A program made the translations under genes and the position numbers. The notes beneath the pieces are model-generated. The model had not been told where the DNA came from. It worked only from the letters and a program-made list of their open reading frames with translations, and ran no database searches. From positions 1 to 64,000 of the forward strand of contig NZ_SCML01000023.1 of the NCBI RefSeq assembly GCF_005503365.1: 64,000 bases of DNA. The letters are read 5' to 3'. Below, in pieces: positions 4,101 to 23,034 of the stretch (its first letter is position 1; every line of letters begins with the position of its first letter). This DNA is from Hydrogenophaga sp. 2FB. Lineage in GTDB: Bacteria; Pseudomonadota; Gammaproteobacteria; Burkholderiales; Burkholderiaceae_C.

Positions 4101-4169
4101 GCATAAGCGTTTTTCGCATATCGCTGTTTGGTATTGATCGTTCCCTGTGCGACGCCCGCTGCCTAGCAT
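4101..4169 (+). promoter_or_regulatory. candidate sulfur-regulon promoter of the FAD/NAD(P) gene
   Basis: Upstream boxes GCATAAGC (4101-4108) and GCATAT (4116-4121) are followed by TCGTT (4138-4142), with a -35-like TTCCCT at 4141-4146, a 17-bp spacer, and a -10-like TAGCAT at 4164-4169. The same order and spacing occur before the sulfate-binding-protein gene, before the sulfonate-type binding-protein gene on the minus strand, and on the plus strand near 20.5 kb. This suggests a shared activator, plausibly CysB. Confidence 0.55.
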
Positions 4170-4235
4170 GGGCGAACCATGATCCCTCGTCGAACTGCCC
4201 CCTGTGCACCAGGGTTTTGAGATCCACCCGTTGCG

Positions 4236-5738
4236 ATGAGCGCCGCCCGCCACATCACCATCGTCGGCGGTGGTTTCTCGGGCGTGAGCGCCGCCGTGCA
4301 ACTGGTGCGCCACAGCCCGCTGCCGCTGGCCATCACCATCGTCGAGCCACGCAAACGCGTGGGGCCGGGCCTGGCCTTTGCCACGCACGACCCCGACCAC
4401 CGCCTCAACGGCCCGACCTGGGCGCATGCCATCGACCCGGTGGATGGCGATCACTTCAAGCGCTGGTGCACACAGCACGGCGTGTTCGAGGCCGATCCGC
4501 AAGCCGTGCGACCCAACGGCATCGCCTTCGTGCGGCGCGCGGTGCTCGGCGCGTACCTCGAAGACATGGTGCACCGCCACGCGCGCTGGGCGGCCACCGG
4601 GTCAACCATCCACACGCTGCAGGACCGCGCCGTCGACGCCTGGCAGCAGGATGGCGTCGTCACCACCGTCACCGAACGGGGCGAGCGTCTGGTGTCGGAC
4701 CTGCTGGTCGTCGCCACCGGCAACGCCGAACCGAAACTGCAGGCACCGCTGGACCCGGCGCTGGCGCGCCACGCGGCCGTGATCGAAAACCCCTTGAACA
4801 CCGTGCGCCTGCTGGGCATCCCCCGCACCGCGCGCGTGCTGATCGTCGGCAGCGGACTGACTTCGCTCGACGTGATCGCCACCTTGCAACGGCAAGGCCA
4901 CACCGGCGGCATCACGGTGGTTTCGCGCCGCGGCCTGCGCCCGCGTGCGCAGCCTCTGGCCCAGGGCACGGTGGAGCATCCCACCGGCCGCCAGAACCTG
5001 GACCGCCTGCTGAGCGACCCGCCCGCCTTCCTGGTGCAGGCCCAGCCCACGCTGCGTGCCTGGGTGAAGGCGGTGCGTGCGCGCATCCGCGAAGGCGCGG
5101 CGCGTGGCGAGAACTGGAACCTGCCGTTCGACGAACTGCGCGATTCGGTGTGGCAACTCTGGCCCACCCTGCCTGCCGCCGAACAAGGCCGCTTCCTGCG
5201 GCGCCTGCGCACCTGGTACGACGTGCACCGCTTCCGCTCACCACCGCAGACCGAAGCGATCTGCCGCGAAGCGCTGGAAGCCGGTCGTGTGGTGCACCTG
5301 GCCGCGCGGCTGCGCTCGTTGGTGCCGACAGCCGACACGCGCCGCATCGAGGCGGTGCTGCAACCCTCTGGCCAGGATCACACACGCACCGAGGCGTTCG
5401 ACGCGGTGGTGAACTGCACCGGCCTGGACGCGGCCTCGCGCACAGCCGCCAATCCGCTTCTGCAGGCGCTGGTGGACCAAGGCACGCTGCGACCCGATGC
5501 CTGCGGGATCGGTTACGCGGTGGACGCGCAGTGCCGCGTGATCGGTGCCGATGGGCGGCGGCAAGCGGCGATCCGGTTGATCGGCCCGCCCACGCTCGGC
5601 ACCTTTGGTGACCCGGGCGGTGCGATGTTCATCGCGGCGCAGATCCACCGCATCCTGCCGGATGTGTTCAACGTGCTGGGCCATGTGGAATCCGACGGTG
5701 TCAAGGTGAGCCAGGCCGCTTCGTTGAGTGCAGCGTAG
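4236..5738 (+). CDS. FAD/NAD(P)-binding protein (COG4529-like)
   Basis: This 500-residue flavoprotein-like protein has an N-terminal Rossmann motif, ITIVGGGFSGVSAA (residues 7-20), a second dinucleotide motif near residue 200 (VLIVGSGLTSLDVI), and a C-terminal FAD-type segment ending GDPGGAMF. The organisation fits the FAD-NAD(P)-binding family found beside uptake systems and oxidoreductases. The reaction is not known. ATG 4236 gives the canonical motif within the first 20 residues, although the RBS is weak. The promoter pattern at 4101-4169 places it in the candidate sulfur regulon, which suggests use under sulfur starvation. Confidence 0.75.
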   Translation: MSAARHITIVGGGFSGVSAAVQLVRHSPLPLAITIVEPRKRVGPGLAFATHDPDHRLNGPTWAHAIDPVDGDHFKRWCTQHGVFEADPQAVRPNGIAFVRRAVLGAYLEDMVHRHARWAATGSTIHTLQDRAVDAWQQDGVVTTVTERGERLVSDLLVVATGNAEPKLQAPLDPALARHAAVIENPLNTVRLLGIPRTARVLIVGSGLTSLDVIATLQRQGHTGGITVVSRRGLRPRAQPLAQGTVEHPTGRQNLDRLLSDPPAFLVQAQPTLRAWVKAVRARIREGAARGENWNLPFDELRDSVWQLWPTLPAAEQGRFLRRLRTWYDVHRFRSPPQTEAICREALEAGRVVHLAARLRSLVPTADTRRIEAVLQPSGQDHTRTEAFDAVVNCTGLDAASRTAANPLLQALVDQGTLRPDACGIGYAVDAQCRVIGADGRRQAAIRLIGPPTLGTFGDPGGAMFIAAQIHRILPDVFNVLGHVESDGVKVSQAASLSAA

Positions 5739-5859
5739 GCCGTTGCGAGGGCGCCTGAGGAACACGACAAGGTGTTGCGCCGTTAGCGGTGCATGAATGA
5801 CGGCTTCAGGACCGGACTGCCGTGCGGGCACTGCGGCGCGCTCGGCCGTGGCAGCCCAC

Positions 5860-6378
5860 TCAGGGAAACGCGGGGATGTCCGGCTCGGTCCCCTCCAGGT
5901 GTGCCTCGGGATGCAATGCCTGCAGCCGCTTTTCGATGGCCTCGACCCGCCACATGGACACGTCCACCATCAGCAGCACCTGGCCACGCTCGATCTGCGC
6001 GGCGAAACGCTGCAGGCGCTTGCTGGGCGTGGAGATGCCGATCATGGAGGACGTCCAGATGCCGAACAGCGCGCCAAAGATGGCCAGTCCGGGGGCGACC
6101 ATGACCCACTGCGCCTCGTCGCCCGCGATGGGATAGAACACGGCCACCAGTGCCCCCAGCAGCCCGCCGAGGCCCGCGCCGACGATCAGGCCTATCTCGG
6201 CCGAGCGCACCACGTCGGAGGTTTGCAGTACGTTGGCCGCGTGCAGGCCACGCATGTCGGCGTCCTCCCGGGCGACGAAATGGATATGGCGCTCCTCGAC
6301 GTGCGCCAGCAGCAGATCGTCCATCGTGGCGCGGGCACTTTTCAGGTCGGGCAAAAGCCAGTAGATACGTTTGCGCAT
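5860..6378 (-). CDS. DUF1269-like membrane protein
   Basis: This 172-residue protein starts MRKRIYWLLPDLKSA and has an N-terminal alpha/beta region, a glycine-rich hydrophobic hairpin around residues 65-115 (two membrane segments with GAGLGGLLGALV and GLAIFGALFG), and a C-terminal VDVSMWRVEAIEKRL segment. This matches the DUF1269/general-stress membrane protein type, whose function is unknown. A strong AAGGAG RBS precedes ATG 6378, so the longer frame reaching 6486 was rejected. It lies just downstream of the cytochrome oxidase operon on the same strand (22-bp gap) and may be read through from it. Confidence 0.7.
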   Translation of the reverse strand: MRKRIYWLLPDLKSARATMDDLLLAHVEERHIHFVAREDADMRGLHAANVLQTSDVVRSAEIGLIVGAGLGGLLGALVAVFYPIAGDEAQWVMVAPGLAIFGALFGIWTSSMIGISTPSKRLQRFAAQIERGQVLLMVDVSMWRVEAIEKRLQALHPEAHLEGTEPDIPAFP

Positions 6379-6400
6379 GATCAACTCCTTTGGGATGGCT

Positions 6401-6790
6401 TCAATGGTTTGCGCTTGTCTTCGGTTCCTCCACCGGCGCGAAGAACGCGCTGCGCGACAGGAAGGTGTAGTCGGCCTCCAGCGCACCGATGCCGATCAGC
6501 GTGATCAGCAGCAGCGGTGGCACCAGGATGGCGTAGACAAGGGCCAGGCGCTCCCACGCCATGTGCATGAAGACGGCCACGATCAACCCCGCCTTCAGCA
6601 GCATGAAGATGATGATGAGCGACCAGCGCAACAGGCCCTGCACCTGGAAGTAGTCCACCATGTAGGAGGCGGCGCTCAGCACGAACAGCAGGCCCCAGAT
6701 CTTGAAGTAGAGGCCCAGGGGATGCTGCTGGCCCTGCTCGTGCGAGCCTGCGCCGCGCCCTTCGTGCTGCCCGTGTTCTGCGTGGTCCAT
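6401..6790 (-). CDS. cytochrome c oxidase subunit IV-type membrane protein
   Basis: This 129-residue protein has a His-rich N-terminus followed by three hydrophobic segments (about residues 28-48, 56-78 and 87-106). It is typical of the small prokaryotic COX4 subunit encoded last in bacterial oxidase operons. The role is assembly or stabilisation of the heme-copper oxidase core rather than catalysis. ATG 6790 was chosen because it starts 16 bases after the upstream subunit III gene ends. It is the last subunit gene of the operon read from 11911 to 6401. Confidence 0.75.
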   Translation of the reverse strand: MDHAEHGQHEGRGAGSHEQGQQHPLGLYFKIWGLLFVLSAASYMVDYFQVQGLLRWSLIIIFMLLKAGLIVAVFMHMAWERLALVYAILVPPLLLITLIGIGALEADYTFLSRSAFFAPVEEPKTSANH

Positions 6791-6806
6791 GCAAGGCTCC
6801 CTTGGT

Positions 6807-7511
6807 CTACCAGAGATAGAAGAACGCGAAGATGAAGACCCACACCAGGTCCACGAAGTGCCAGTACAGGCCCATGGTCTCCACGATCTCGTAGTTGCCC
6901 TTGCGGCCGGTGAGGAAGCCGGGCCGCTCGTGGTCGAGGTCACCGCGCGCCACCTTGGTGGCGACGATGACCAGGAAGATCACGCCGATGCTCACGTGCG
7001 TCCCATGGAAGCCCGTGATCATGAAGAAGCAGGAGCCGAACTGCGCCGCGCCCCAGGGGTTGCCCCAGGGCCGCACGCCCTCGGAGATGAGCTTGTACCA
7101 CTCGAAGGCCTGCATGCCGACGAAGGCAGCCCCGAGCGCCGCGGTGGCCACCAGCAGCCAGAAGGTCGTCCTGCGGTCGCGCCGGTAGCCGTAGTTGACC
7201 GCGAGCGCCATCGTTCCGCTGCTGGAGATCAACACGAAGGTCATGATGGCGATCAGCAGCAGGGGCACGTTCTTGCCGAACATCATGAGCGAGAACACCT
7301 CGCTCGGGTTGGGCCAGGGCGTGACCGTTGACATGCGCACCGACATGTACGCGATCAGGAAGCTGCCGAAGATGAAGCTGTCCGAAAGAAGGAAGATCCA
7401 CATCATCGGCTTGCCCCAGGGCACACCCTTGAAGGCGCGCTGGTCCGAGGCGACGTCCCGCACGGCGCCGCGCCAGCCCTCGCCTGCCGCCAACCTCGCT
7501 TCGTTCGCCAT
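6807..7511 (-). CDS. cytochrome c oxidase subunit III (second subunit-III-like gene)
   Basis: This 234-residue integral membrane protein of the COX3 family has five or more membrane spans. Conserved features include the KPMMWIFLLSDS segment in the first helix, FEWYKL in the middle, the FHGTHVSIG motif, and YWHFVDLVWVFIF at the end. Subunit III surrounds subunit I and supports proton uptake and assembly. It follows another, shorter subunit-III-like gene at 7525-8220, so the operon encodes two COX3 proteins, as in the coxMNOP type of alternative oxidase. Confidence 0.88.
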   Translation of the reverse strand: MANEARLAAGEGWRGAVRDVASDQRAFKGVPWGKPMMWIFLLSDSFIFGSFLIAYMSVRMSTVTPWPNPSEVFSLMMFGKNVPLLLIAIMTFVLISSSGTMALAVNYGYRRDRRTTFWLLVATAALGAAFVGMQAFEWYKLISEGVRPWGNPWGAAQFGSCFFMITGFHGTHVSIGVIFLVIVATKVARGDLDHERPGFLTGRKGNYEIVETMGLYWHFVDLVWVFIFAFFYLW

Positions 7512-7524
7512 GGCTCGTCTCCGG

Positions 7525-8220
7525 TCAGAGGGGCGTGGCGGAACAGATCGCCAACCCCAGATCTTCCGACACCAGCAGTGCGTACAGCAGCACCCACACC
7601 GCCAGCAGGTAGTGCCAATAGGTCGCGCACAGTTCGCACGCCAGTCGCATGCGCGCGGCGTCGGCCCCACGCCTGACCCGCAGCGAGGCCCGCGCCCAGG
7701 CCACCAGTCCGCCCAACACGTGCAGGCCGTGCACCGCCGTGAACAGGTAGAAGAAGGCGGTGGCCGCGCTGCTGGCGAGGAGGAGGCCTGCGTCGTAGAA
7801 CTGCTTCCACACGTAGAGCTGGCCGGCCAGGAAGGCGAAGGTCAGCAGGCCGCTGGCGGCCAGGCCACGGCGCACGTTGCCGGCATCGGCACGGCGCGCG
7901 GCGTACACGGTCCATTCCATGGCCAGGCTGGCGCCCGCCAGGAAGACGGTGTTGACCAGCAGGAAGCGCGGCCGCGGAATGGGATTCCAGTCGGCCACGT
8001 CCAGCCGCATGGCATAGGCGCTGGCGAACAGCACGAACAGGGAGCTGGCCACGCCGAGGAAGACCCACAGCGCCACCTTGGCCGTGGGCTTGGCCGCCAG
8101 GCCCACGCGCACCTCGGGCACCACCACCTCGGCGCGCCAGGGCTCCACCAGGGTCTGCCGCATCAGCCACCCGACGATGACAGCCACCAGCAGCGAGAAG
8201 AACATCAGGCCGATGGTCAT
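7525..8220 (-). CDS. cytochrome c oxidase subunit III-like protein (first copy)
   Basis: This 231-residue COX3-family membrane protein has an additional N-terminal membrane helix (residues 1-22). The central segments show LYVWKQFYDAGLL and FTAVHGLHVLGG, matching the conserved His-containing helix of COX3, and YWHYLLAVWVLLYALL at the C-terminus. It is less canonical than its neighbour at 6807-7511. Its start is 4 bases downstream of the subunit I gene, which implies translational coupling. Two different subunit III proteins in one complex, or alternative use of them, are both possible. Confidence 0.82.
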   Translation of the reverse strand: MTIGLMFFSLLVAVIVGWLMRQTLVEPWRAEVVVPEVRVGLAAKPTAKVALWVFLGVASSLFVLFASAYAMRLDVADWNPIPRPRFLLVNTVFLAGASLAMEWTVYAARRADAGNVRRGLAASGLLTFAFLAGQLYVWKQFYDAGLLLASSAATAFFYLFTAVHGLHVLGGLVAWARASLRVRRGADAARMRLACELCATYWHYLLAVWVLLYALLVSEDLGLAICSATPL

Positions 8221-8224
8221 GGCA

Positions 8225-10024: not shown

Positions 10025-10044
10025 TCAGCCTCCCAAGCGCGGGT

Positions 10045-11397: not shown

Positions 11398-11398
11398 G

Positions 11399-12616: not shown

Positions 12617-12618
12617 GC

Positions 12619-13416
12619 TCAGACCTCCGCAAGCTGAGGCGTTGGCGTGTGCGCCAACACCTCGCCCATGGCTTCGAGGATCTGGCGCTTGAGCGCGGCA
12701 AACGCCGGGCTCACACGGTCGCGCGGGCCAGGTGGCAGATCGATCTTCACCTGCTGGACGATGCGGCCCGGGTTGGCGTTCATCACCACCACGGTGTCGC
12801 TCAAGAAGATCGCCTCGTCCACATCGTGCGTCACCAGGATCATGGTCACGCCCTCGGCGCGCCAGATGCGCAGCAGCTCTTCCTGCAGGCGCACACGCGT
12901 GAGCGCGTCCAGCGCGCCCAGCGGTTCGTCAAGCAGCAAAATTTCCGGCTGACCGACCAGGCCGCGCGCGATCGCGCCACGCTGCGCCATGCCGCCCGAG
13001 AGCTCGTGCGGGTAGGCCTTCTCGAAACCCTGCAGGCCCACCAGCTCGATGTGCGACTGGATGGTGCGGCGCTGCTGCTCGGGCGAGAGCGCCGAGTTGG
13101 TCAGCGCCAGACCGATGTTCTGCTCCAGCGTCATCCAGGGCAACAGGCGGTGGTCCTGGAACACGATGGCGCGCGACAGGCTGGTGCCGGCAATGCGCTC
13201 GCCGTGCAGCAGGATCTCGCCCTCGTACGCCTTGTCCAGCCCGAGGATCAGCCTCAGCAGCGTGGACTTGCCACAACCACTGGGGCCGACCAGCGTGACG
13301 AAGGCGCCAGGCTCGACATCGAAACTCGCGTTGACCAGCGCATCCAGGCGCGGACGGCCTGGCACGGCATAGCTCTTGGAAACGGCCTTGACTTCAAGGC
13401 GACCGGGTTCTGCCAT
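12619..13416 (-). CDS. ABC transporter ATP-binding protein, nitrate/sulfonate/taurine type
   Basis: This 265-residue ATPase has Walker A GPSGCGKST (about residues 42-50), a Q-loop, the signature LSGGMAQR, Walker B ILLLDEPLGALD, and an H-loop in LVTHDVDEAI. It energises import through the permease at 13420-14265 and belongs to the SsuB/TauB/NrtD group. Genes run binding protein, permease, ATPase, TPR protein, with gaps of 9, 3 and 2 bases, so it is one operon. The substrate is most likely an alkane- or aryl-sulfonate, given the sulfur context and promoter, but taurine or another sulfur anion is equally consistent. Confidence 0.88.
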   Translation of the reverse strand: MAEPGRLEVKAVSKSYAVPGRPRLDALVNASFDVEPGAFVTLVGPSGCGKSTLLRLILGLDKAYEGEILLHGERIAGTSLSRAIVFQDHRLLPWMTLEQNIGLALTNSALSPEQQRRTIQSHIELVGLQGFEKAYPHELSGGMAQRGAIARGLVGQPEILLLDEPLGALDALTRVRLQEELLRIWRAEGVTMILVTHDVDEAIFLSDTVVVMNANPGRIVQQVKIDLPPGPRDRVSPAFAALKRQILEAMGEVLAHTPTPQLAEV

Positions 13417-13419
13417 GGT

Positions 13420-14265
13420 TTACCCCTCAAAGCCTTGTTTCCAGCGGAGCACGCGCCGCTGCAGCAAATACATCGTGCGGTCGATGCCGAAGCCCACGAA
13501 GCCGATGATCACCATGCAGACCAGCAACTGGTCGGTGAGCAACAGCCCCTGCGCGCGAAAGATCAGAAAGCCCAGACCTTCGAGGCCACTCAGGCCCTCG
13601 GCCACCACCACCAGCGCCCAGGCGAGACCGGCCGCGTAGCGCAGCGACACCATGATGGTCGGCGTGGCCGCGGGCAGGATGATCTTGCGTACCAGTTGCC
13701 AGCGCGTGAGCGTCATCACCTCGGCGAGTTCGATGTAGCTCTTGTCCACGCTGCGGATGCCCTGCAGCGTGTTCAGGAACACCGGGAAGAACACGGTCTT
13801 GGCGATCACCAGAATCTTGGCCGGCGCACCCAGGCCCAGCCACAGCACGATCAGCGGAAACCAGGCGATGCCGGGAATGTGGCGGATGGTGTCGAAGGTG
13901 GGTGAGAGGAATTGTTCGAACCGCTTCGACAACCCCGCGGCCACACCGAGCACCACGGCGGCCAACGCGCCGTACAGGAAGCCCTGCGAGACGAGAGACA
14001 GGCTCACCGCGAAATCGAGCAGCAGCTTCTGCTCGGTCAGCATCCTGAAGAAGGCCTCCACCACCTTGATCGGCGCGGGCAGGAAGACCGGGTCGATCCA
14101 GGCCAGGCTGGCCGCCGTCTGCCACAGCAGCAGCACGGCGGCGGGCAGCACGAAACCGATGGCACGGCTGGGCGAGAGCCCTTGCAGGAACTTCGCCAGA
14201 AGCGTCGGCGCGCCGGGGTCCACCGGTGTGGCCGCCGACGGCAGGGTTTGCGTCAGGGTGTTCAT
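13420..14265 (-). CDS. ABC transporter permease, sulfonate/taurine type
   Basis: This 281-residue inner-membrane permease of the SsuC/TauC group has about six spans. It contains the cytoplasmic EAA-type loop that contacts the ATPase (around ELAEVMTLTRWQLVRKIILP). The preceding KSYI and following TPTIMVSLRYAAGLAW are typical. Start ATG 14265 lies 9 bases after the binding-protein stop. It partners the ATPase at 12619-13416 and the periplasmic protein at 14275-15369. Confidence 0.88.
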   Translation of the reverse strand: MNTLTQTLPSAATPVDPGAPTLLAKFLQGLSPSRAIGFVLPAAVLLLWQTAASLAWIDPVFLPAPIKVVEAFFRMLTEQKLLLDFAVSLSLVSQGFLYGALAAVVLGVAAGLSKRFEQFLSPTFDTIRHIPGIAWFPLIVLWLGLGAPAKILVIAKTVFFPVFLNTLQGIRSVDKSYIELAEVMTLTRWQLVRKIILPAATPTIMVSLRYAAGLAWALVVVAEGLSGLEGLGFLIFRAQGLLLTDQLLVCMVIIGFVGFGIDRTMYLLQRRVLRWKQGFEG

Positions 14266-14274
14266 GGCGTTCGT

Positions 14275-15369
14275 TCAGCGGTAGATCGAGTGCGAGCCAC
14301 CCGCGAAGAAGCGGCCGTCGACGAAGGCGTCCACCTGCGCATCGGTCAGGCGGCGTTCGCCCAGGATGTCGTCGCCCTGCTTCACGTACCAGTCGATGAA
14401 GGTCTTGATGGAGTTGCGCGCGCGCTGGGCGTTGGGCTCGCCGGCCATGAACTCCCATTGGCCCAGGTGGGTGATCTGGAATTTGGCCACTTCCACCGGC
14501 ACGCGCGTTTCGCGCGCGACGATCTTCGCGGCCTCGTCCACGTTGTCCAGCGTCCAGGCCATGGCGCGTTCGCGCGAAGCCAGGAAGGCTTTCACCGCCT
14601 CGGGGTACTTGTTGACGAACTCGCGTTTGGCGAAGTACGTCACGCGACCCGCGTGGTTCACGTACACGCCATCGTCCGGCACATGGCCGATCACCTTGAG
14701 CTTGCCCGAGAGCCAGGCGCCCGTGGCGTTGCCCGCGGCCAGGTGCGTGGTGGTGGCGTCCAGCGCGCCGGAGATCACCGCCGAAATGGCCACCGTGGGG
14801 TTGTCGATCGATTCGTAGCGCACGCGGCCCTTGGTCTGGCGTGTGTCCAGCGGCAAGCCCACCGAGTTCAGCGCTTCGGTGGGGGCGGACCAGTAGCAGC
14901 TGATGCGGCTGCTGCCGAACTTCTTGCCGTCCAGGTCGGCCAGGGTGTTCACCGACTTGTTCGACACCGCGGCCAGCACCGGCGCGCGGTAGCGGTTGGA
15001 GGTTTCCGAGGCCCAGATGATCACGCCGTCCAGCCCGTTGGCGCGGTGCACGGTGGCGGGGTAGATCATGCGCTGCGCGATCGAAATCGCACCTTTGGCG
15101 AGGGCCCCCGTTTCGGCGCCGACCAACTCCGCGCCGCCCGAAGCGATGAGATTCACTTCTTTCGTGCCGACCTTGGTGAACTCTTCCTTGAAGATGCCCT
15201 TCTCGCGGGCGATCACGGTCCATGGCGTGAGCTGCAGGTTGATGGCGGGCAGCACCTCGGCCACGGCGGTGCCGGGCTGCGCGAGCAGGCCGATGGCCAG
15301 CGCGGCGGCAGCGCTCAGGGCGCGCAGGCGGCCTTGGGTGTGTCGTGCGTTCTTCGCTTCGTGCGTCAT
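14275..15369 (-). CDS. sulfonate-type ABC transporter periplasmic binding protein
   Basis: This 364-residue NMT1/SsuA-like binding protein has a signal peptide of about 38 residues ending AVA. The mature part begins EVLPAINLQLTPW and shows the family order of a REKGIFKEE helix, a LVGAETGALAKG pocket segment, and a LDGKKFGSSR hinge. ATG 15369 has a GGAGAAA RBS; the longer frame to 15729 overlaps the divergent gene and is rejected. The minus-strand promoter between 15370 and 15470 matches the sulfur-type pattern of this window. The ligand is probably a sulfonate (inference). Confidence 0.85.
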   Translation of the reverse strand: MTHEAKNARHTQGRLRALSAAAALAIGLLAQPGTAVAEVLPAINLQLTPWTVIAREKGIFKEEFTKVGTKEVNLIASGGAELVGAETGALAKGAISIAQRMIYPATVHRANGLDGVIIWASETSNRYRAPVLAAVSNKSVNTLADLDGKKFGSSRISCYWSAPTEALNSVGLPLDTRQTKGRVRYESIDNPTVAISAVISGALDATTTHLAAGNATGAWLSGKLKVIGHVPDDGVYVNHAGRVTYFAKREFVNKYPEAVKAFLASRERAMAWTLDNVDEAAKIVARETRVPVEVAKFQITHLGQWEFMAGEPNAQRARNSIKTFIDWYVKQGDDILGERRLTDAQVDAFVDGRFFAGGSHSIYR

Positions 15370-15412
15370 GAATTTCTCCAGGTTGGTGGTGACGTTGTGT
15401 GTCGATGAGGCG

Positions 15413-15540
15413 CCGATTCTTGAGGCCGCTCGCGCCCGCGCCAAGGAAGGAAATCGGCGATGCATATGTGACGGCAATGCGCGCAGATGCTTATGCGCAT
15501 TTCGTGCCACACGGCCGCGTGGTGACCGCCCAGAATGCGC
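15413..15540. promoter_or_regulatory. divergent promoter region of the sulfonate-type operon and binding-protein/MauG pair
   Basis: On the minus strand ACATAT is followed at the usual spacing by TCCTT and an AAGAAT -10-like hexamer (at 15416-15421 in plus coordinates), placing it within the shared sulfur-type architecture. On the plus strand GCTTATGC (15489-15496) and CAGAAT (15531-15536) precede ATG 15545, but the -35 position fits poorly. If CAGAAT is the -10, the transcript would begin almost at the start codon and be leaderless. Confidence 0.5.
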
Positions 15541-15544
15541 CCTC

Positions 15545-17445: not shown

Positions 17446-17487
17446 GCAGCCGATCCGCTCGGCGGACGGTAGTTTTATATAGTTTCA

Positions 17488-17508
17488 ATATCTCATAAAA
17501 TGAGATAT
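17488..17508. promoter_or_regulatory. perfect 9-bp inverted repeat over the AbiE-type operon start (operator)
   Basis: ATATCTCAT and ATGAGATAT are exact inverted copies at 17488-17496 and 17500-17508, separated by AAA. The right arm runs into the start codon at 17507-17509. The sequence just upstream (17470-17490) is AT-rich and suits a promoter. AbiEi antitoxins repress their own operons by binding inverted repeats, so this is a likely autoregulatory site. Confidence 0.7.
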
Positions 17509-18307
17509 GAGCACTATTTACTCTCCACTGGAAAAAGGTTTCACCGCATCCCTGCACGCCATTGACCGGTGCCAGGTCGCGCTCTTGCGGGAGATCGCGG
17601 GCCTTTCCGGACTACGCATGGTGCTCAAGGGAGGCATGGCCATGCGAGCCAGCTTTGGCAGTTTGCGCCTCACGAAGGACATGGACTTCGACCGCGACAC
17701 GGAGGCCACCACCTTGAACTCGGTCCGCAGCATGATCACGCGTGGCATGAAGAGTGCAGCAGAACAGTCGCGGCTCCGGGCCGTGGCGATCGATTTCTCC
17801 AAAGCCACCGATGTCACCCTGCGCGCGCGCATGGTCGGTGAAACGATCGCAGGGCACGCGGTGCGGTTCGAAGTCGAGGTGTCGGGCCGGCGGTTTCCGC
17901 GCCGGGAAAACCGGCGCATGGAAACCGTGGTGCCGCCGTCCGACTACGGCATGGCGCCCTTTCCCGTGCACACCTACACCCACGCGATGCTGGCCGCGTC
18001 CAAGGTTCTGGCCGTCATGTCGGACAACCGCAACGTGCCGCGCGACGTCTACGATCTTCGAGACCTGATCTTCGCGCAGGCCAATCCGGTCGACATCCTT
18101 CGCGGCCTTCCCACAGAGGCCGTGGGGTACATGCGGGCCGACGTCGTCAGCAAACTCGCGCTCATCACCTTTGATCAAGCCCGAGAGGAACTTCTCCCCT
18201 ATCTGCCCCCAGCCATCGCGGCCGAAATCGACCAGGCCACATGGGACGCATGGACGCTGGACGTCGCTGAATCGATCGATGGCTGGTTTCAGGAGATCGG
18301 GCCATGA
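17507..18307 (+). CDS. AbiEii-like nucleotidyltransferase toxin
   Basis: This 266-residue protein is of the AbiEii/AbiGii toxin family, a DNA polymerase beta-like nucleotidyltransferase. The family motifs are LKGGMAMR (Lys41-Gly42-Gly43) and RLTKDMDFD, with acidic residues at Asp58, Asp60 and Asp62. A later DVYDLRDL segment, typical of the family, follows near residue 185. AbiEii toxins of type IV systems act as nucleotidyltransferases and cause reversible growth arrest or abortive phage defence. The start overlaps the operator palindrome and has no clear RBS, so the message may be poorly translated or leaderless. The stop overlaps the next gene's start (ATGA), implying coupled translation. 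Confidence 0.82.
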   Translation: MSTIYSPLEKGFTASLHAIDRCQVALLREIAGLSGLRMVLKGGMAMRASFGSLRLTKDMDFDRDTEATTLNSVRSMITRGMKSAAEQSRLRAVAIDFSKATDVTLRARMVGETIAGHAVRFEVEVSGRRFPRRENRRMETVVPPSDYGMAPFPVHTYTHAMLAASKVLAVMSDNRNVPRDVYDLRDLIFAQANPVDILRGLPTEAVGYMRADVVSKLALITFDQAREELLPYLPPAIAAEIDQATWDAWTLDVAESIDGWFQEIGP

Positions 18308-19038
18308 ATGCACCATGGAAGGTCCATGCGGAGACCTGGCTGATGTCTCCAGAAAGCCCGTTTGTGCTGACCTCGGGCTCGCTGCGGCTGCTCGCCGAGA
18401 GCCATCACCTCGATACCGGCGACCGAGCACCTGCAAACGCCACTTTCTTCCGTTGGCTCAAGGACATGACGGCGGCGCACAAGCTGATCGAAGTCACCCA
18501 TGGCGTGTACCTCAATCGACTCGGACACCGTTCTGAAAGCCCTTCCGCGGCGGCTTCCTTTGTCCGTCGCGGTGCGGTCGTGAGCCTCGCCTATGTGTTG
18601 GAGCAGGCGGGTCTCACGAACAACTTCGGCGAGACGTTCACCTGTGTCATTCCCACACACCCGTCCTGGACCACACCACAACTCAGCGAGCGGCATGTGC
18701 CTGGCCTGGGCACCTTTCGATTTCACGCGATGCGCGTCGACCGCCTGGAACCGCAGGGCGCGAAAACCAGCGACATCTACGACCTGCGCTTCAACTACAA
18801 GCGCACCACACCCGAAAAGGCCTTGCTCGACTGGATCTACCTTGCAAACACAAAGCAAAGCAAGCTCACAGCCCCGGCACTGGACATCAATGCCAACGAA
18901 CTGGACCCGCGGCGGCTCAAGCGCCTGGCCCGCAAGATGGGCATTGAAGCGGAGCTGATGGCGTGGATGGAGCGTTGGCAGCAGTACCAGAACGACCCTG
19001 AGGTGGATGCCAACGCTTCACGGTTCGAGATCGGCTGA
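18304..19038 (+). CDS. AbiEi-like antitoxin/transcriptional regulator
   Basis: This 244-residue protein has an N-terminal winged-helix-like region (about residues 20-75, including FFRWLKDMTAAHKLIEVTHGVYLN) and a C-terminal domain with TTPEKALLDWIYLA, the pattern of AbiEi-type antitoxins. Such proteins repress the operon and counter the nucleotidyltransferase toxin. It overlaps the toxin gene by 4 bases. The order is toxin first, the reverse of the classical abiEi-abiEii operon. I infer the antitoxin role from domain pattern and partner. Confidence 0.75.
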   Translation: MNAPWKVHAETWLMSPESPFVLTSGSLRLLAESHHLDTGDRAPANATFFRWLKDMTAAHKLIEVTHGVYLNRLGHRSESPSAAASFVRRGAVVSLAYVLEQAGLTNNFGETFTCVIPTHPSWTTPQLSERHVPGLGTFRFHAMRVDRLEPQGAKTSDIYDLRFNYKRTTPEKALLDWIYLANTKQSKLTAPALDINANELDPRRLKRLARKMGIEAELMAWMERWQQYQNDPEVDANASRFEIG

Positions 19039-19045
19039 ACGGCTC

Positions 19046-20401
19046 TCAAGCCACCAACCGCTGCGCCCCCGCATACCGGCTCACCGGCCGCTCCAACCCC
19101 AGGTTCTCCCGCAAGGTCGTGCCCTCGTACGCCGTGCGGAACAAGCCCCGTCGCTGCAGTTCCGGCACCACCAGTTCCACGAACTCGTTGAGCGAGGCCG
19201 GCAGCACCGGTGGCATCACGTTGAAGCCATCGGCCGCTCCGTTCTCGAACCATTCCTGCATGCGATCGGCGATGGTCTGCGGCGTGCCGATCACCACCCA
19301 GTGCCCGCGCGCGCCGGCCAGGTACTCGTACAGCTGGCGCACGGTGAAGCGTTCGCGCCGCGCCAGTTCGATCACCACGTGCGCGCGGCTGTTGATGCCC
19401 TTGGGCGGCTCGGGGTAGTACGGCGGCGGCGCGTCCAGGCTCCAGCGCCGCAGGTCCTCGCCCGGCCAGAACGGCGCGAGCGTGCTCAGGCCCACCGACG
19501 GGTGGATCAAGGCCTGCAGCTCGGCCCACTTGGCCTGCGCCTCTTCCTCCGTGCGGCCGATCACCGGCGAAATGCCGGGCAGCACCAGCAACTGCTCGGG
19601 GCGGCGGCCGTACTTGCCCATGCGGCCTTTCACGTCGGCATAGAACGCCTGCGCTTCGGCCAGGCTGGTCCAGGCGGTGAAGATCGCCTCGGCCGTCGCG
19701 GCGGCGAGTTCCTTGCCGTCCTCGGACGAGCCGGCCTGCACGATCACCGGATGGCCCTGCGGCGAGCGCTCCAGGTTGAGCGGCCCCTTCACCTTCAGGT
19801 GCTTGCCGACGTGGTTGAGCTCGTGCACCTTCTTCGGGTCGAAGTAGATGCCGGACTCGCGGTCGCGCACGAAGGCATCGTCGTCGAAGCTGTCCCACAG
19901 GCCCTTGACCACGTCCACGAACTCGGTCGCCTTCGCGTAGCGGTCGCCCGGCGAGGGGTGCGCGTCCAGCCCGAAGTTGCCATGCACGCTGGCGTTGCTG
20001 GTGGTCACCACGTTCCACGCCGCGCGGCCTTTGCTGATGTGATCGAGCGAGGCGAACTTGCGCGCGAGCAGGTAGGGATCTTCGTAGGTGGTGGACGCCG
20101 TGGCCACGAAGCCGATGTGTTTCGTCACCGCGGCCAGCGCGGCCCACAAGGTGACCGGCTCGAAGTGCGAGATGCGGCCCTGGCGGCCGAACGACTCGTC
20201 GTCGCCCGTGCCCCAGATGCCCGGGCTGTCGGCGACGAACACCTGGTCGAACAGGCCGCGCTCCGCCGTCTGCGCCACCTCGATGTAGTGATCGATGTTG
20301 GTGCCCGAGTCAATCTGCGACCCCGGGTGCCGCCAGGCGGCGATGTGGTGGCCGGTGGCCATGATGAAGGCGCCAAGGCGCAGTTGCCGATGCTTGCTCA
20401 T
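19046..20401 (-). CDS. FMN-dependent monooxygenase, NtaA/SnaA/DszA (LLM) family
   Basis: This 451-residue class C flavin monooxygenase uses FMNH2 from a separate reductase to oxidise substrates. Typical blocks are LRLGAFIMATGHH at the start, YEDPYLLARKFASLDHIS, the WNVVTTSN segment, and QAGSSEDGKELAA. The family includes nitrilotriacetate, pristinamycin, dibenzothiophene sulfone and methanesulfonate/sulfone monooxygenases. In Burkholderiales such genes often serve organosulfur scavenging. ATG 20401 has a GGGGAG RBS. Its upstream minus-strand region has TCGTT and TAGATT at the same spacing as the shared promoter pattern, supporting a sulfur-starvation role (inference). Confidence 0.82.
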   Translation of the reverse strand: MSKHRQLRLGAFIMATGHHIAAWRHPGSQIDSGTNIDHYIEVAQTAERGLFDQVFVADSPGIWGTGDDESFGRQGRISHFEPVTLWAALAAVTKHIGFVATASTTYEDPYLLARKFASLDHISKGRAAWNVVTTSNASVHGNFGLDAHPSPGDRYAKATEFVDVVKGLWDSFDDDAFVRDRESGIYFDPKKVHELNHVGKHLKVKGPLNLERSPQGHPVIVQAGSSEDGKELAAATAEAIFTAWTSLAEAQAFYADVKGRMGKYGRRPEQLLVLPGISPVIGRTEEEAQAKWAELQALIHPSVGLSTLAPFWPGEDLRRWSLDAPPPYYPEPPKGINSRAHVVIELARRERFTVRQLYEYLAGARGHWVVIGTPQTIADRMQEWFENGAADGFNVMPPVLPASLNEFVELVVPELQRRGLFRTAYEGTTLRENLGLERPVSRYAGAQRLVA

Positions 20402-20533
20402 GGGTGGGTGCTCCCCTGTGGTTGGAACCCGCCAATCTAGGCGCGCAGGCCCCGACAGGGAACGAAACAAAGCGCATATGCATAGCCGATCTGCTTCGTT
20501 GTGGCGGCGCACTTTCACGCCTAGCATGGGTTC
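20402..20533. promoter_or_regulatory. back-to-back promoters around a GCATATGC palindrome
   Basis: The 8-bp palindrome GCATATGC lies at 20474-20481. To the right, on the plus strand, TCGTT (20496-20500) and TAGCAT (20522-20527) repeat the spacing seen before the 4236 and 23068 genes, including the longer match GCCTAGCATGGG shared with 4161-4172. To the left, on the minus strand, TCGTT and TAGATT face the monooxygenase gene. The layout suggests one activator site region serving two divergent transcripts. Confidence 0.55.
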
Positions 20534-20619
20534 ACCGGTTGAGTCTGGTCCGGCCGATGCGGGGATGCTGAAAACCCTGGTTGTCTCCTGGGGGGAGGAT
20601 TGCATCGGCCGGTTTTTTT
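20534..20619 (+). ncRNA. candidate small RNA ending in a hairpin plus T7
   Basis: No convincing gene is present on the plus strand here, yet a TAGCAT -10-like box (20522-20527) is followed within about 95 bases by a terminator-like structure. CCGGCCGATGC (20550-20560) pairs perfectly with GCATCGGCCGG (20602-20612), directly followed by seven T (20613-20619). The 41-base loop contains a smaller CTCC/GGAG stem. The opposing methyltransferase transcript appears to terminate at about 20626, so two transcripts meet here. A short peptide beginning at the ATG inside the loop cannot be excluded, but it would read through the T-tract. Existence and function are inferred. Confidence 0.45.
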
Positions 20620-20625
20620 ACGCCC

Positions 20626-20690
20626 AAAAGAAAACCCGCCGAAGCGGGTGAACCTCCAGGGTGGAGGCGAAGCTCGGGGGGAGAGCTTCG
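20626..20690 (-). terminator. triple-hairpin intrinsic terminator of the methyltransferase gene
   Basis: Read on the minus strand, three hairpins occur in a row. They are an 8-bp CGAAGCTC stem (plus arms 20668-20675 and 20683-20690), a CCTCCA/TGGAGG stem, and ACCCGC/GCGGGT with a TTCG loop (20634-20649), followed by TTTTCTTTT. The last is a textbook intrinsic terminator. The preceding two may stabilise the 3' end or belong to a separate minus-strand RNA. Confidence 0.65.
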
Positions 20691-20803
20691 GAGACCTTGG
20701 TGTATGACAGTGCCGCCAGTATTCCCGCAAGCACTGCCGGGCCGTGTCGGACACGGATCAGTTGCTGTGTAGGAAAAGAAGAAGATGCGGCGCACGCCCG
20801 TCT

Positions 20804-21568
20804 TCAACGGCTCGCCACGATGAAAAGCCGCGGGAAAGGCAACAGCACTGTGCCATCGGCCAGCGCGGGATAGGCCTCGGTGATGGCGGCGAGATAGCGG
20901 GCCACGAAAGCCGCCTTCTCGTCTTCGTCCAGCGGCGCCAGATAGGGCCGCAGGGCCGAGGTCTTGAACCACTCCACCACGGCTTCGGGGCCACCCGCCA
21001 GGGGATGGAAGTAGGTCGTGCGCCACACATCGACGCTGGTGCACAGCGGCTTGAGCAGCTGGAAATAGAACGCGGCGTGGTGCCGCGCGGGGTGTTGAAT
21101 GCCTCCTATTTTTGAGGCCCAGGGTCCGTCTGCCGCCACCTGCCGCGCCAGCCGGTGCGCGGGCTCTTCCAGGTTGTCGGGCGTCTGCACGGCCAAGCTT
21201 CCGCCGGGGGCCAGACGGCTGACCAAGCGCGGGTACAGCCTGGCGTGCTCGGGCAGCCATTGCAGCGAGGCGTTGGCCAGGATCACATCAAAGGACTCGG
21301 TCGGGTTCCAGGTGGCGATGTCGGCGAGTTCAAAAGCCGTGTCCGGCAAGCGCTTGCGGGCCGCGGCCAACATGTCTTCGGAACTGTCCAGCCCGGTCAC
21401 GCGGGCCTGCGGGAAGCGCGCGGCCAACACCTCGGTGGAGTTGCCAGGGCCACAGCCGAGGTCGATGGCGACACGCACGTCCCGGAGCGGCAGCGCGGCC
21501 ACCAGGTCGCGCACAGGGCGCGTGCGTTCTTGCTCAAAGGCCGAGTACTTGCTGGCGGACCACGTCAT
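20804..21568 (-). CDS. tam: trans-aconitate 2-methyltransferase-like SAM-dependent methyltransferase
   Basis: This 254-residue class I methyltransferase has the SAM-binding motif AIDLGCGPGNST (about residues 34-45), the acidic loop VTGLDSSEDML, and LANASLQWLPEH. These match the Tam family, which methylates trans-aconitate to relieve aconitase inhibition. ATG 21568 gives the standard Tam N-terminus MTWSASKYSAFE; a longer frame to 21673 was rejected. It is a single gene with its own 3' terminator, divergent from the peroxiredoxin gene. Substrate assignment follows the family and is not proven by sequence alone. Confidence 0.8.
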   Translation of the reverse strand: MTWSASKYSAFEQERTRPVRDLVAALPLRDVRVAIDLGCGPGNSTEVLAARFPQARVTGLDSSEDMLAAARKRLPDTAFELADIATWNPTESFDVILANASLQWLPEHARLYPRLVSRLAPGGSLAVQTPDNLEEPAHRLARQVAADGPWASKIGGIQHPARHHAAFYFQLLKPLCTSVDVWRTTYFHPLAGGPEAVVEWFKTSALRPYLAPLDEDEKAAFVARYLAAITEAYPALADGTVLLPFPRLFIVASR

Positions 21569-21745
21569 CGTGCGTTCTCTCCATGGGGTTGGGCTGTCGG
21601 CGCATTGTGCCTCTGCGCTCAATGTCCATGCACAAAGAAGGCATCGAGCCATATGCCGAGAGCCCATAAACAAACTACTTCATAGTTGTTTGAAGACCTG
21701 CAGGCGCTCCTGACAATGCACCTCTACTTTTGACGAGAGCCCTTC

Positions 21746-22387
21746 ATGAGCACACTTCGACTCGGTGATACCGCACCCGATTTCACACAAGACTCCACCG
21801 ACGGCCCGATCCGCTTCCACGAATGGGCGGGCGACCACTGGGTGGTGTTGTTCTCGCACCCGGCCGACTTCACACCGGTGTGCACCACCGAACTCGGCAG
21901 GACCGCCGCGCTGTCCACCGAATTCGCCCGGCGCAACGCCAAGCCCATCGCGGTCAGCGTCGACCCGCTGGACTCGCATGGCAAATGGGTGCTCGACATC
22001 AACGAGACGCAGAACACCACGGTCAACTTCCCCATCCTGGCCGATGCGGACCGCCAGGTGGCCACGCTCTACGACATGATCCACCCCAACGCGTCGGCCA
22101 CCGCCACGGTGCGCAGCGTGTTCATCATCGACCCGAAGAAGGTGATCCGCACCACGCTCACCTACCCCGCGAGCACCGGCCGCAACTTCAACGAGATCCT
22201 GCGCGTGATCGATTCGCTGCAGCTCACCGACAGCCACAAGGTCGCCACGCCGGCCAACTGGACCGACGGCGAGGACGTGGTGATCGTGCCCAGCCTGCAA
22301 GACCCGGCCGAACTCGCGCAGCGTTTCCCCAAGGGCTTCAAGGCCGTGCGGCCCTACCTGCGCCTCACGCCGCAGCCCAACCGCTGA
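21746..22387 (+). CDS. 1-Cys peroxiredoxin (Prx6 type)
   Basis: This 213-residue cytoplasmic peroxidase of the AhpC/TSA superfamily, Prx6 branch, reduces H2O2 and organic hydroperoxides. The peroxidatic cysteine is Cys46 in HPADFTPVCTTELG. The long C-terminal dimerisation arm with YPASTGRNFNEILRVIDSLQ and the final KGFKAVRPYLR is typical, and no conserved resolving cysteine is seen. The gene precedes a small hydrolase gene by 11 bases and the two likely form a transcription unit upstream of the sulfate transporter genes. Confidence 0.93.
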   Translation: MSTLRLGDTAPDFTQDSTDGPIRFHEWAGDHWVVLFSHPADFTPVCTTELGRTAALSTEFARRNAKPIAVSVDPLDSHGKWVLDINETQNTTVNFPILADADRQVATLYDMIHPNASATATVRSVFIIDPKKVIRTTLTYPASTGRNFNEILRVIDSLQLTDSHKVATPANWTDGEDVVIVPSLQDPAELAQRFPKGFKAVRPYLRLTPQPNR

Positions 22388-22398
22388 GCGCGCACGGC

Positions 22399-22977
22399 AT
22401 GGCATCGCCCACGGTCATCATCATTCCGGGCTGGCGCAACTCCGGCCCGGGCCACTGGCAGACCTTGTGGTCGGACAGCCTGCCTTCGGTGTTGCGGGTG
22501 GAGCAGGACGACTGGGTCGCGCCAGTGCGGCAGGCCTGGGTCTCGCGCCTGAGCGAAACCATTGAACGCGCGCCGGGCACGGTGATCGTGGTCGCGCACA
22601 GCCTGGGCTGCATCACCACCACGCACCTGCCGCCCGAGGTGGCGCAACGCATCCAGGGCGCGCTGCTGGTCGCGCCAGCCGACCCCGAGCGCCGCGGCGT
22701 GCTGGCCGACTTCGCGCCCGTGCCCTACCAGCGCCTGCCCTACCGCAGCATCCTGGTGGCCAGCAACAACGACCCCTATTGCCCGGTGCGCACCGCGGGC
22801 GCCTATGCGCGGGCCTGGGGCAGCGAGTTCGTGCGGCTCAACGAGGCCGGTCACATCAACGTCGATTCGGGCCACGGCCACTGGCCGCTGGGCTTGGCGT
22901 TGCTGCAGTCGCTGGGCGCGCACGTGCCGGCTGGCAACCGCCTGGACGAGCCGGTGGCGACAGCGCTTTATTCCTGA
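22399..22977 (+). CDS. RBBP9/YdeN-family serine hydrolase
   Basis: This 192-residue alpha/beta hydrolase begins with the family-typical VIIIPGWRNSGPGHWQ oxyanion segment. The nucleophile is Ser68 in VVAHSLGC, the aspartate lies in ASNNDPYC, and the histidine in NEAGHINVDSGHGHWP. Natural substrates of this bacterial family are mostly unknown. ATG 22399 is the first in-frame ATG after the peroxiredoxin gene, with an 11-base gap. Confidence 0.85.
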   Translation: MASPTVIIIPGWRNSGPGHWQTLWSDSLPSVLRVEQDDWVAPVRQAWVSRLSETIERAPGTVIVVAHSLGCITTTHLPPEVAQRIQGALLVAPADPERRGVLADFAPVPYQRLPYRSILVASNNDPYCPVRTAGAYARAWGSEFVRLNEAGHINVDSGHGHWPLGLALLQSLGAHVPAGNRLDEPVATALYS

Positions 22978-22979
22978 TC

Positions 22980-23034
22980 GACATAAAGAAACAAGAACAA
23001 AGTCGTTGGGAATCGCTGGACCGACGCCCAGAAT
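22980..23034 (+). promoter_or_regulatory. candidate sulfur-regulon promoter of the sulfate transporter operon
   Basis: ACATAA (22981-22986), TCGTT (23003-23007), a -35-like TTGGGA (23006-23011), a 17-bp spacer and CAGAAT (23029-23034) have exactly the spacing found at 4116-4169 and 20474-20527. The predicted transcript start is about 27 bases before the binding-protein ATG at 23068. As the operon is a standard CysB target in related bacteria, this copy anchors the interpretation of the others. Confidence 0.6.

What the first reader, a model, noticed from the sequence alone, without database searches (positions are those of the whole stretch)
4101..23034. Shared promoter architecture across four or five sulfur-related transcription units
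Near 4.1, 20.5 and 23.0 kb (plus strand) and at 15.4 kb (minus strand) the same elements occur in register. They are RCATAW, then T-C-(G/C)-T-T starting 22 bases later, a TT-starting -35-like hexamer, a 17-bp spacer, and a (T/C/A)AG(C/A)AT hexamer starting 48 bases after the first box. The monooxygenase promoter (minus strand, about 20.4 kb) keeps the TCGTT to TAGATT spacing. One copy precedes the sulfate uptake operon, a known type of CysB target, and a CysB gene lies at 332-1270. This suggests a compact sulfur-limitation regulon that also includes an uncharacterised flavoprotein.
Basis: partly seen in the sequence, partly recalled or inferred. Interest (0 to 1): 0.72.

Follow-up and report, generated by a model that had tools for sequence, protein, structure and literature searches.

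The report
Sulfur-starvation promoters, one driving small RNA
A cluster of genes for scavenging sulfur in a Hydrogenophaga bacterium is switched by a set of look-alike promoters, and one of these promoters drives no protein gene but what looks like a small RNA.

Summary
The composite motif occurs at four sites in the window and nowhere else on either strand; it was absent from 60 random sequences. That spacing is kept in the 30 sulfate-transporter, 7 ABC, 5 monooxygenase and 5 divergent promoters read in the genus; the first box is looser. A profile finds one new significant site elsewhere in the genome, before a sulfonate-transporter operon. In other genera 18 of 25 examined sites precede sulfur-uptake or island genes. 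So this is a sulfur-starvation regulon. The window LysR looks like an accessory, SsuR-like CysB paralogue.

The surprise is the 20.5-kb plus-strand unit: no gene follows. About 86 nt downstream lies a terminator-like stem with U7, though with a long branched loop that a simple scan does not list. This RNA is conserved in 5 of 67 Hydrogenophaga genomes, divergent from the monooxygenase over one palindromic operator, without Rfam match at threshold. I read it as a sulfur-starvation small RNA with unknown targets.

The parts
332..1270 (+). CysB-family LysR regulator, accessory (SsuR/Cbl-like), probable activator of the organosulfur promoters
   Evidence: Pfam LysR domains; NCBIfam PRK12684 475 bits, above cut-off; CysB equivalog 404 bits, below cut-off 436; closest solved chains are CysB; present in 19 of 67 genomes, all 16 with the monooxygenase among them
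4116..4169 (+). promoter A: GCATAT 4116, TCGTT 4138, TAGCAT 4164
   Evidence: orthologous promoters before tauD in G012, G028, G036, G043
4179..4235 (+). short remnant resembling the 5' end of a TauD dioxygenase gene; intact copies exist in four relatives
   Evidence: resemblance read by eye
4236..5738 (+). FAD/NAD(P)-binding flavoprotein (NAD_binding_9)
   Evidence: orthologues at 63% identity or more in G028, G043, G012, G036, G005; in the first four it follows an ABC permease gene
12619..15369 (-). SsuA/SsuC/SsuB-like ABC transporter genes (12619-13416, 13420-14265, 14275-15369)
   Evidence: related to, but below the cut-offs of, the NCBIfam sulfonate models
15416..15469 (-). promoter B: ACATAT 15469, TCCTT 15447, AAGAAT 15421; a further GCATAAGC palindrome lies upstream near 15485-15503
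   Evidence: second box in 7 of 7, hexamer exact in 6 of 7 and first box exact in 4 of 7 orthologous promoters
19046..20401 (-). NtaA/DmoA-family FMN-dependent (luciferase-like) monooxygenase
20434..20465 (-). promoter C (monooxygenase): TCGTT 20465, TAGATT 20439
   Evidence: hexamer exact in 3 of 5 orthologues, first box in 0 of 5
20461..20500 (.). 40-bp palindromic operator AACGAA...ATGCAT...TTCGTT shared by the two divergent promoters
   Evidence: mean pairwise identity 0.87 over 5 genomes against 0.42 in the adjoining spacer
20474..20527 (+). promoter D (small RNA): GCATAT 20474, TCGTT 20496, TAGCAT 20522
   Evidence: all three elements exact in 5 of 5 copies
20534..20619 (+). candidate small RNA, about 86 nt, ending in the terminator-like stem CCGGCCGATGC...GCATCGGCCGG-U7 (start inferred from the -10)
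   Evidence: the simple terminator scan with loops of 3-8 does not list it
21664..21717 (+). promoter E (peroxiredoxin), weaker: CCATAA 21664, TTGTT 21686, GACAAT 21712; not found by profile R2 at E <= 10
   Evidence: the orthologous G012 site has TCGTT and CAGAAT
21746..22387 (+). 1-Cys peroxiredoxin (AhpC/TSA)
22414..22977 (+). serine hydrolase (PF06821) domain within ORF 21823-22977; true start not determined
22981..23034 (+). promoter F (sulfate uptake): ACATAA 22981, TCGTT 23003, CAGAAT 23029
   Evidence: second box in 30 of 30, hexamer exact in 29 of 30, first box exact in 8 of 30 (ATA(A/T) in 28 of 30) of the orthologues read
23068..27048 (+). sulfate-uptake operon: sbp 23068-24069, cysT 24201-25082, cysW 25079-25948, cysA about 25960-27048

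Best explanation
The sites are LysR-type activator sites of the CysB family, each fused to a weak sigma-70-type promoter. A dimer half-site (RCATAW, or ATAA within a dyad) lies near -60, a second contact (TTCGTT or GTCGTT) overlaps or abuts the -35, and a poor -10 makes the promoter depend on the activator. When sulfate and cysteine run short, the CysB-family proteins switch these units on together: sulfonate-type ABC uptake, the FMN monooxygenase, the flavoprotein (which in this genome has come to lie behind a former TauD promoter), the 1-Cys peroxiredoxin and sulfate uptake. The accessory paralogue at 332-1270 most likely reads the organosulfur boxes, while a more widely held CysB reads the sulfate-uptake box. 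One palindrome serves two divergent promoters. On one side it drives the monooxygenase. On the other it drives a roughly 86-nt untranslated RNA that ends in its own terminator-like stem and probably acts in trans as a sulfur-starvation small RNA. Shown here: motif, register, conservation, the gene families behind it, and promoter plus conserved stem with no conserved gene between. Inferred: activator binding, sulfur response, transcription and termination of the RNA, and its trans action.
For: Motif and register. Profile R2 finds one held-out site in the own genome (E 1.5e-5), just before an FAD_binding_2 - ferredoxin - SsuA - two-permease operon. In five relatives all 28 matches with E <= 0.002 precede sulfur or island units: 18 belong to the trained promoter classes, and 10 others precede tauD x4 (orthologous to one trained site), FAD_binding_2 x3, peroxiredoxin x2 and serine hydrolase x1. 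LysR with monooxygenase: 16 of 16 genomes with the monooxygenase (83% identity or more) carry it against 3 of the 51 others, Fisher P 9e-13, not corrected for phylogeny; 7 of 7 ABC and 5 of 5 small-RNA genomes also have it. Small RNA: operator 0.87, -10 block 1.00 and RNA stem-loop 0.84 mean pairwise identity, against 0.42 in the spacer, 0.55 in the RNA 5' part and 0.50 upstream of the operator. In the four matches outside the own genome the alignment ends at query base 218 of 239, at the T run. The T run is on the plus strand only. Core lengths 60, 62, 63, 63 and 66 nt with indels, so no frame is shared by all five.
Against: No expression or binding data. The terminator-like stem (11 pairs, U7) encloses about 40 nt with inner hairpins, and the simple scan (loops of 3-8) does not list it, so efficient termination is assumed. 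Only five copies of the RNA were found, and covariation gives no support: one two-sided change, equalled by 108 of 500 shuffles. Folding energy is only moderately better than shuffles (z -1.3 to -3.1), and two of five inner folds differ. Four of five core lengths are multiples of three, and the frame agrees in the window and G043 (read by eye), so a short peptide is not fully excluded. The exact first box is kept in only 8 of 30 sulfate-uptake, 4 of 7 ABC and 0 of 5 monooxygenase promoters. The sulfate-uptake box occurs as often without the window LysR (15 of 30) as with it. The strict motif was not found in the roughly 390 bases scanned upstream of the tauD-monooxygenase pair of the second clade (0 of 10 loci; 2 of 12 not oriented). 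Seven of 25 examined sites in other genera precede genes with no evident sulfur link, and no base rate was computed.
Confidence: 0.77

Rival explanations
1. The RNA at 20534-20619 is a cis-acting attenuator or leader of the gene downstream, not an independent RNA.
For: In G012, G028 and G043 a rhodanese-encapsulin-desulfurase operon, and in G036 a peroxiredoxin, follow on the same strand within about 200 nt. The stem with its long branched loop is not a textbook terminator.
Against: Those genes have their own in-register promoter after the stem. The downstream gene differs between genomes, and in the window the next plus-strand gene with a Pfam match is over 1.1 kb away, with a converging gene between. 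The RNA and its operator are what is conserved.
Confidence: 0.13
2. The transcript encodes a small peptide.
For: The window has an open frame from an internal ATG across the stem, and the same frame runs in G043 (read by eye); four of five core lengths are multiples of three.
Against: Indels inside the most conserved stretch put G028 and G012 in another frame, and G036 differs as well (read by eye). The conserved sequence runs into the stem and T run.
Confidence: 0.08
3. The shared boxes are only generic sigma-70 promoters of GC-rich genomes, with no common regulator.
For: The -35 and -10 hexamers are ordinary in kind; the consensus scan of 19-24.3 kb found none of them, so they are weak.
Against: Conserved elements lie near -40 and -60, outside the core promoter, with fixed register over several unit types and many genomes. 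Matches concentrate before sulfur genes.
Confidence: 0.05
4. Housekeeping CysB alone reads all the boxes and the LysR at 332-1270 has another role.
For: All four paralogues share the stretch TSQPG(V/I/M)S(R/K) in the helix-turn-helix (31 to 41 of 62 residues identical in pairs). The sulfate-uptake box is intact in 15 of 30 genomes without this LysR.
Against: Presence of the LysR tracks the organosulfur genes, and it sits beside them in several genomes, for example G005 next to the flavoprotein and G047 next to the monooxygenase.
Confidence: 0.3

Closest known systems
CysB / SsuR sulfur regulon of Burkholderia cenocepacia (Iwanicka-Nowicka 2007; Lochowska 2011)
   Same: Two related CysB-family activators; targets sbp-cysTWA, sulfonate transport, taurine dioxygenases. 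From memory of the 2011 abstract: about 44 bp upstream of or overlapping the -35 suffice for SsuR binding. The two papers were seen only as references, and a gene list sbp-cysTWA-ssuR, in passages of PMC7970998; a direct look-up of the 2011 paper was not held.
   Different: The regulator here is not next to sbp. The regulon adds the NtaA/DmoA-type monooxygenase, the flavoprotein, a peroxiredoxin and a small RNA. I recall no small RNA in that regulon.
Cbl/CysB control of tauABCD and ssu in Escherichia coli
   Same: Accessory CysB paralogue for organosulfur genes on top of a general CysB; recalled, with the 1997 paper seen only as a reference.
   Different: The window LysR scores 381 bits to the Cbl equivalog against a cut-off of 491, so it is not Cbl proper.
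SrpI family 2A encapsulin with cysteine desulfurase (eLife 2021, PMC8049743; abstract and passages seen)
   Same: Sulfur-starvation shell and cargo genes; in three relatives such genes lie behind the small RNA with an in-register promoter.
   Different: Not at this place in the window (the rest of the own genome was not searched for it); in relatives a rhodanese gene comes first. CysB and rhodanese are not mentioned in that paper (0 hits each).
Trans-acting small RNAs with an anti-Shine-Dalgarno stretch (recalled; no call)
   Same: The RNA carries UGUCUCC in all five copies, complementary to GGAGACA, seen before starts such as window 57964 and 46763.
   Different: The stretch is partly paired in the predicted folds, and no convincing target was found.

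Membership tests
CysB/SsuR-type sulfur-starvation regulon | CysB-family LysR gene present and linked | tested here: met
CysB/SsuR-type sulfur-starvation regulon | common site upstream of sulfate and organosulfur uptake genes, conserved in register | tested here: met
CysB/SsuR-type sulfur-starvation regulon | binding of the regulator to the sites | not testable with these tools
   needs gel shift or footprint
CysB/SsuR-type sulfur-starvation regulon | induction by sulfate or cysteine limitation | not testable with these tools
   needs expression data
CysB equivalog (NCBIfam PRK12681) for 332-1270 | score above the curated cut-off | tested here: not met
   403.7 against 436 bits
Cbl equivalog (PRK12679) for 332-1270 | score above the curated cut-off | tested here: not met
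   381.1 against 491 bits
CysB-family subfamily (PRK12684) for 332-1270 | score above the curated cut-off | tested here: met
   475.4 against 402 bits
SsuR of Burkholderia for 332-1270 | orthology to the characterised SsuR protein | not tested
   no SsuR sequence was at hand; the likeness rests on distribution and context only
Bacterial intergenic small RNA | own promoter, and no gene between it and the RNA's end | tested here: met
Bacterial intergenic small RNA | own intrinsic terminator | tested here: inconclusive
   11-pair stem plus U7 conserved, but long branched loop and not listed by the simple scan
Bacterial intergenic small RNA | sequence conservation beyond the promoter, without a conserved reading frame | tested here: met
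   frames differ by indels
Bacterial intergenic small RNA | compensatory changes supporting the fold | tested here: inconclusive
   1 two-sided change in 5 sequences, 108 of 500 shuffles equal it
Bacterial intergenic small RNA | transcript observed; Hfq or target pairing | not testable with these tools
   no expression data; target scan uninformative
Known Rfam family | match at gathering score | tested here: not met
   0 matches in the window; on the plus strand at relaxed threshold only weak unrelated matches (E 0.78 and 1.7)

The most novel reading that the evidence does not exclude
A dedicated sulfur-starvation small RNA, made from one palindromic CysB-family operator back to back with a sulfur-scavenging monooxygenase, lowers translation of selected mRNAs by pairing its UGUCUCC stretch with their ribosome-binding sites, so that the cell spends less sulfur while it scavenges more: a riboregulatory arm of the CysB/SsuR response.
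Probability: 0.33. Interest if true: 0.7.

Novelty: new variant of a known kind. Interest (0 to 1): 0.52.

Why it matters
Sparing small RNAs are known for iron (recalled, e.g. RyhB; PrrF also appears in passages), but for sulfur a bacterial counterpart under CysB-type control did not turn up in my searches (listings of open-licence papers only). If the RNA is made and acts in trans, it gives a concrete, testable case. The profile also gives a usable handle on the sulfur-scavenging regulon of this family of bacteria, which here includes a flavoprotein of unknown function, a 1-Cys peroxiredoxin and, in relatives, a sulfur-related encapsulin.

Tried and rejected
Target search: duplex energies of the RNA core against start regions of predicted genes in the window and in four relatives. 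Only the seven best of each list were looked at. The one gene that came up in two lists is the peroxiredoxin (window 21842/21845, G012 L022 16299/16302), at an internal codon about 96 nt inside the gene in the window, so not at its start; start calls were unreliable and I draw nothing from it. Complementary 7- to 9-mers: AGGAGAC lies within 14 nt of an ATG in 10 of 20 places in about 223 kb, but that is what any Shine-Dalgarno word would do.

Covariation and relaxed Rfam search: no support. On the minus strand at 20626-20692 there is a sub-threshold anti-hemB score, 27.1 bits against 49.5.

Consensus scan of 19-24.3 kb: no promoter-like hit, and the stem at the end of the RNA is not among its 11 terminator-like sites.

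A sixth match in G024 was rejected after reading it: 33 bases without promoter or stem.

Rows dropped: 30 sbp loci were handed out and read, of 42 genomes with a copy at 69% identity or more (49 genomes with any match). One of 26 matches in other genera had no locus. Of 12 weak rows (E > 0.01), three were inspected by script and one by its letters. Of three weak rows (E 0.19 to 0.93), all lie over stop-free frames of 381 to 924 codons; one (L113, E 0.34) is just before a TctC-family gene, no sulfur link known to me.

Translating window:22388-22977 failed on stops. Literature: ten searches; three papers opened for passages only. The B. cenocepacia SsuR paper of 2011 is not held; the 2007 paper was not looked up.


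Full report
What was checked. None of 60 first-order Markov sequences of the same composition holds it; the spacing is sharp, with five pairs at the stated gap and 0 to 2 at each of 23 other gaps. The monooxygenase promoter on the minus strand keeps the second spacing (20465 to 20439). A sixth site, with TTGTT and GACAAT, lies in register before the 1-Cys peroxiredoxin gene at 21746; profile R2 does not list it in the window at E <= 10.

Where it is. The window is the first 64 kb of a 98-kb contig in a 6.3-Mb assembly. Genes: CysB-family LysR (332-1270), flavoprotein (4236-5738), cytochrome oxidase genes, SsuABC-like transporter (12619-15369), a di-haem MauG-like protein, an AbiEii-family gene, the NtaA/DmoA-type FMN monooxygenase (19046-20401), peroxiredoxin, serine hydrolase, and sbp-cysT-cysW-cysA (23068-27048).

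Conservation of the promoters. Upstream regions of orthologues in the genus were located by their second box and then read without gaps. The hexamer at +26 is exact in 29 of 30 sulfate-binding-protein promoters, 6 of 7 ABC, 3 of 5 monooxygenase and 5 of 5 divergent promoters. The first box is looser: exact in 8 of 30 (ATA(A/T) in 28 of 30), 4 of 7, 0 of 5 and 5 of 5. The sulfate-uptake promoters often carry a dyad of the form TTATTC-N7-GAATAA, then AAACAAGAACAAAGTCGTT, then CAGAAT; the spacer before the -10 drifts. Only one flavoprotein promoter (the window's) could be aligned, because in G028, G043, G036 and G012 the flavoprotein gene follows an ABC permease gene. The promoter orthologous to the window's 4.1-kb site stands there before a TauD dioxygenase gene. 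In the window a short stretch at 4179-4235 still resembles the start of that gene, so the flavoprotein has probably come under the TauD promoter by loss of what lay between. Intact TauD copies exist in those four relatives.

A wider test. A sequence-only profile of 28 sites was run on the whole own genome. Beyond the five window sites, which it was built on, it gives one clear match (E 1.5e-5), about 10 to 35 nt (by choice of start codon) before an FAD_binding_2 gene that is followed by a ferredoxin, an SsuA-family binding protein and two permeases; the three further rows have E 0.19 to 0.93. In five relatives there are 40 rows with E <= 1. All 28 with E <= 0.002 lie before small-RNA (4), monooxygenase (4), sulfate-uptake (5), ABC (5), tauD (4), FAD_binding_2 (3), peroxiredoxin (2) or serine-hydrolase (1) units; the first 18 are of the trained classes. 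In 39 genomes of other genera, 13 have 26 matches with E <= 0.01. Of these 25 were examined, and 18 precede sulfate-type binding proteins (3), sulfonate-type binding proteins (5), TauD (1), an FMN reductase (1), a TauE-family exporter (1), rhodaneses (2), 1-Cys peroxiredoxins (2) or the same serine hydrolase family (3, one of them 251 nt away). The other seven precede nothing recognised (2), a doubtful frame, a FadL-type porin, an ABC ATPase, an amino-acid-type binding protein and an AraC regulator. Downstream frames were picked by script and no base rate for these families was computed, so this is enrichment by judgement.

Which regulator. Four CysB-family genes were found in the genome. The window's is accessory: at E <= 1e-100 it is in 19 of 67 genomes. 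All 16 genomes with the monooxygenase at 83% identity or more have it, and 3 of the other 51; so do all 7 with the ABC binding protein at 83% or more, all 6 with the flavoprotein at 63% or more and all 5 with the small RNA. The Fisher value (9e-13) ignores shared ancestry. Of the 30 genomes whose sulfate-uptake box was read, 15 have this LysR and 15 do not. I conclude that the box family is read by CysB-type proteins in general and that the local LysR most likely reads the organosulfur sites, as SsuR does in Burkholderia cenocepacia (recalled; those papers seen only as references). The recognition helices are too alike to settle it, and orthology to SsuR itself was not tested.

The small RNA. 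Behind the 20.5-kb plus promoter there is no gene. Transcription from TAGCAT (20522) would start near 20534 and meet CCGGCCGATGC...GCATCGGCCGG followed by seven T's at 20613-20619. The 11-pair stem encloses some 40 nt with inner hairpins; the simple scan, which allows loops of 3-8, does not list it, so I call it terminator-like. The T run is on the plus strand only, and the next plus-strand gene with a Pfam match starts at 21746, past a converging methyltransferase gene. The region is found in 5 of 67 genus genomes, the own one included, and in no other genus among 299 family genomes. In the four matches outside the own genome the homology ends at the T run. Block identities over ten pairs are 0.87 for the 40-bp operator, 0.42 for the spacer, 1.00 for the -10 block, 0.55 for the 5' part of the RNA and 0.84 for its stem-loop: promoter and RNA are held while what lies between drifts. 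The RNA cores are 60, 62, 63, 63 and 66 nt long, with indels inside the conserved stretch, so one reading frame cannot run through all, although the window and G043 agree. The long stem pairs in 100% of cells but hardly varies, so covariation is silent; the inner fold differs in two of the five. In all five genomes the RNA lies divergent from the monooxygenase. Twelve further monooxygenase copies at 83-87% identity, in 11 genomes, lack it by the R1 and DNA searches; there the upstream stretch reads as another gene in the same direction, TauD in the three of twelve that were tested.

Neighbours in relatives. After the RNA, G012, G028 and G043 have a promoter of the same build (TGGTT, 26 bases, TAGAGT) in front of a rhodanese gene (family tested in G028), an SrpI-type encapsulin and an aminotransferase-V gene of the cysteine desulfurase kind; G036 has TCGTT, 26, CAGAAT before a peroxiredoxin. 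SrpI encapsulin is induced by sulfate starvation in a cyanobacterium (PMC8049743, abstract and passages). This places the RNA inside a sulfur-starvation block whatever its exact role.

How it most likely works. Low sulfur activates CysB-family proteins; a tetramer on the shared palindrome turns on the monooxygenase on one side and the RNA on the other. The RNA is most likely a trans-acting regulator. A stretch UGUCUCC is present in all five copies and could pair with GGAGACA ribosome-binding sites (examples), but I found no convincing target, so this last step is a guess. Attenuator and peptide readings are less likely, for the reasons given above and in the rivals.

Verdict. The regulon is real by comparative evidence and of a known kind. 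The small RNA is the new element; I found no report of a CysB- or SsuR-controlled small RNA in the listings searched, a search limited to open-licence papers.

Noticed in passing
window 4179-4235: Short remnant resembling the 5' end of a TauD dioxygenase gene between promoter A and the flavoprotein gene; intact copies stand behind the orthologous promoter in four relatives.
   Followed up: partly
L020 (G028), L021 (G043), L022 (G012), downstream of the small RNA: Rhodanese - SrpI-type family 2A encapsulin - aminotransferase-V (cysteine desulfurase type) genes behind an in-register sulfur-type promoter, absent from the corresponding place in the window.
   Followed up: partly
window 17507-18307: AbiEii-family nucleotidyltransferase gene between the MauG-like gene and the monooxygenase, inside the sulfur block.
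   Followed up: no
window 20626-20692, minus strand: Sub-threshold match to the Burkholderia anti-hemB RNA family (27.1 bits, gathering 49.5), near the terminator-like stem of the converging methyltransferase gene.
   Followed up: no
L115 (G000 C31) 1268-6056: FAD_binding_2 flavoprotein, ferredoxin, SsuA-like and two permease genes behind the only new significant profile site in the genome: a probable further sulfonate operon.
   Followed up: partly
window 15485-15503, minus strand: A second palindromic GCGCATAAGC-type element upstream of promoter B, seen in several orthologues by eye, perhaps a second activator site.
   Followed up: no
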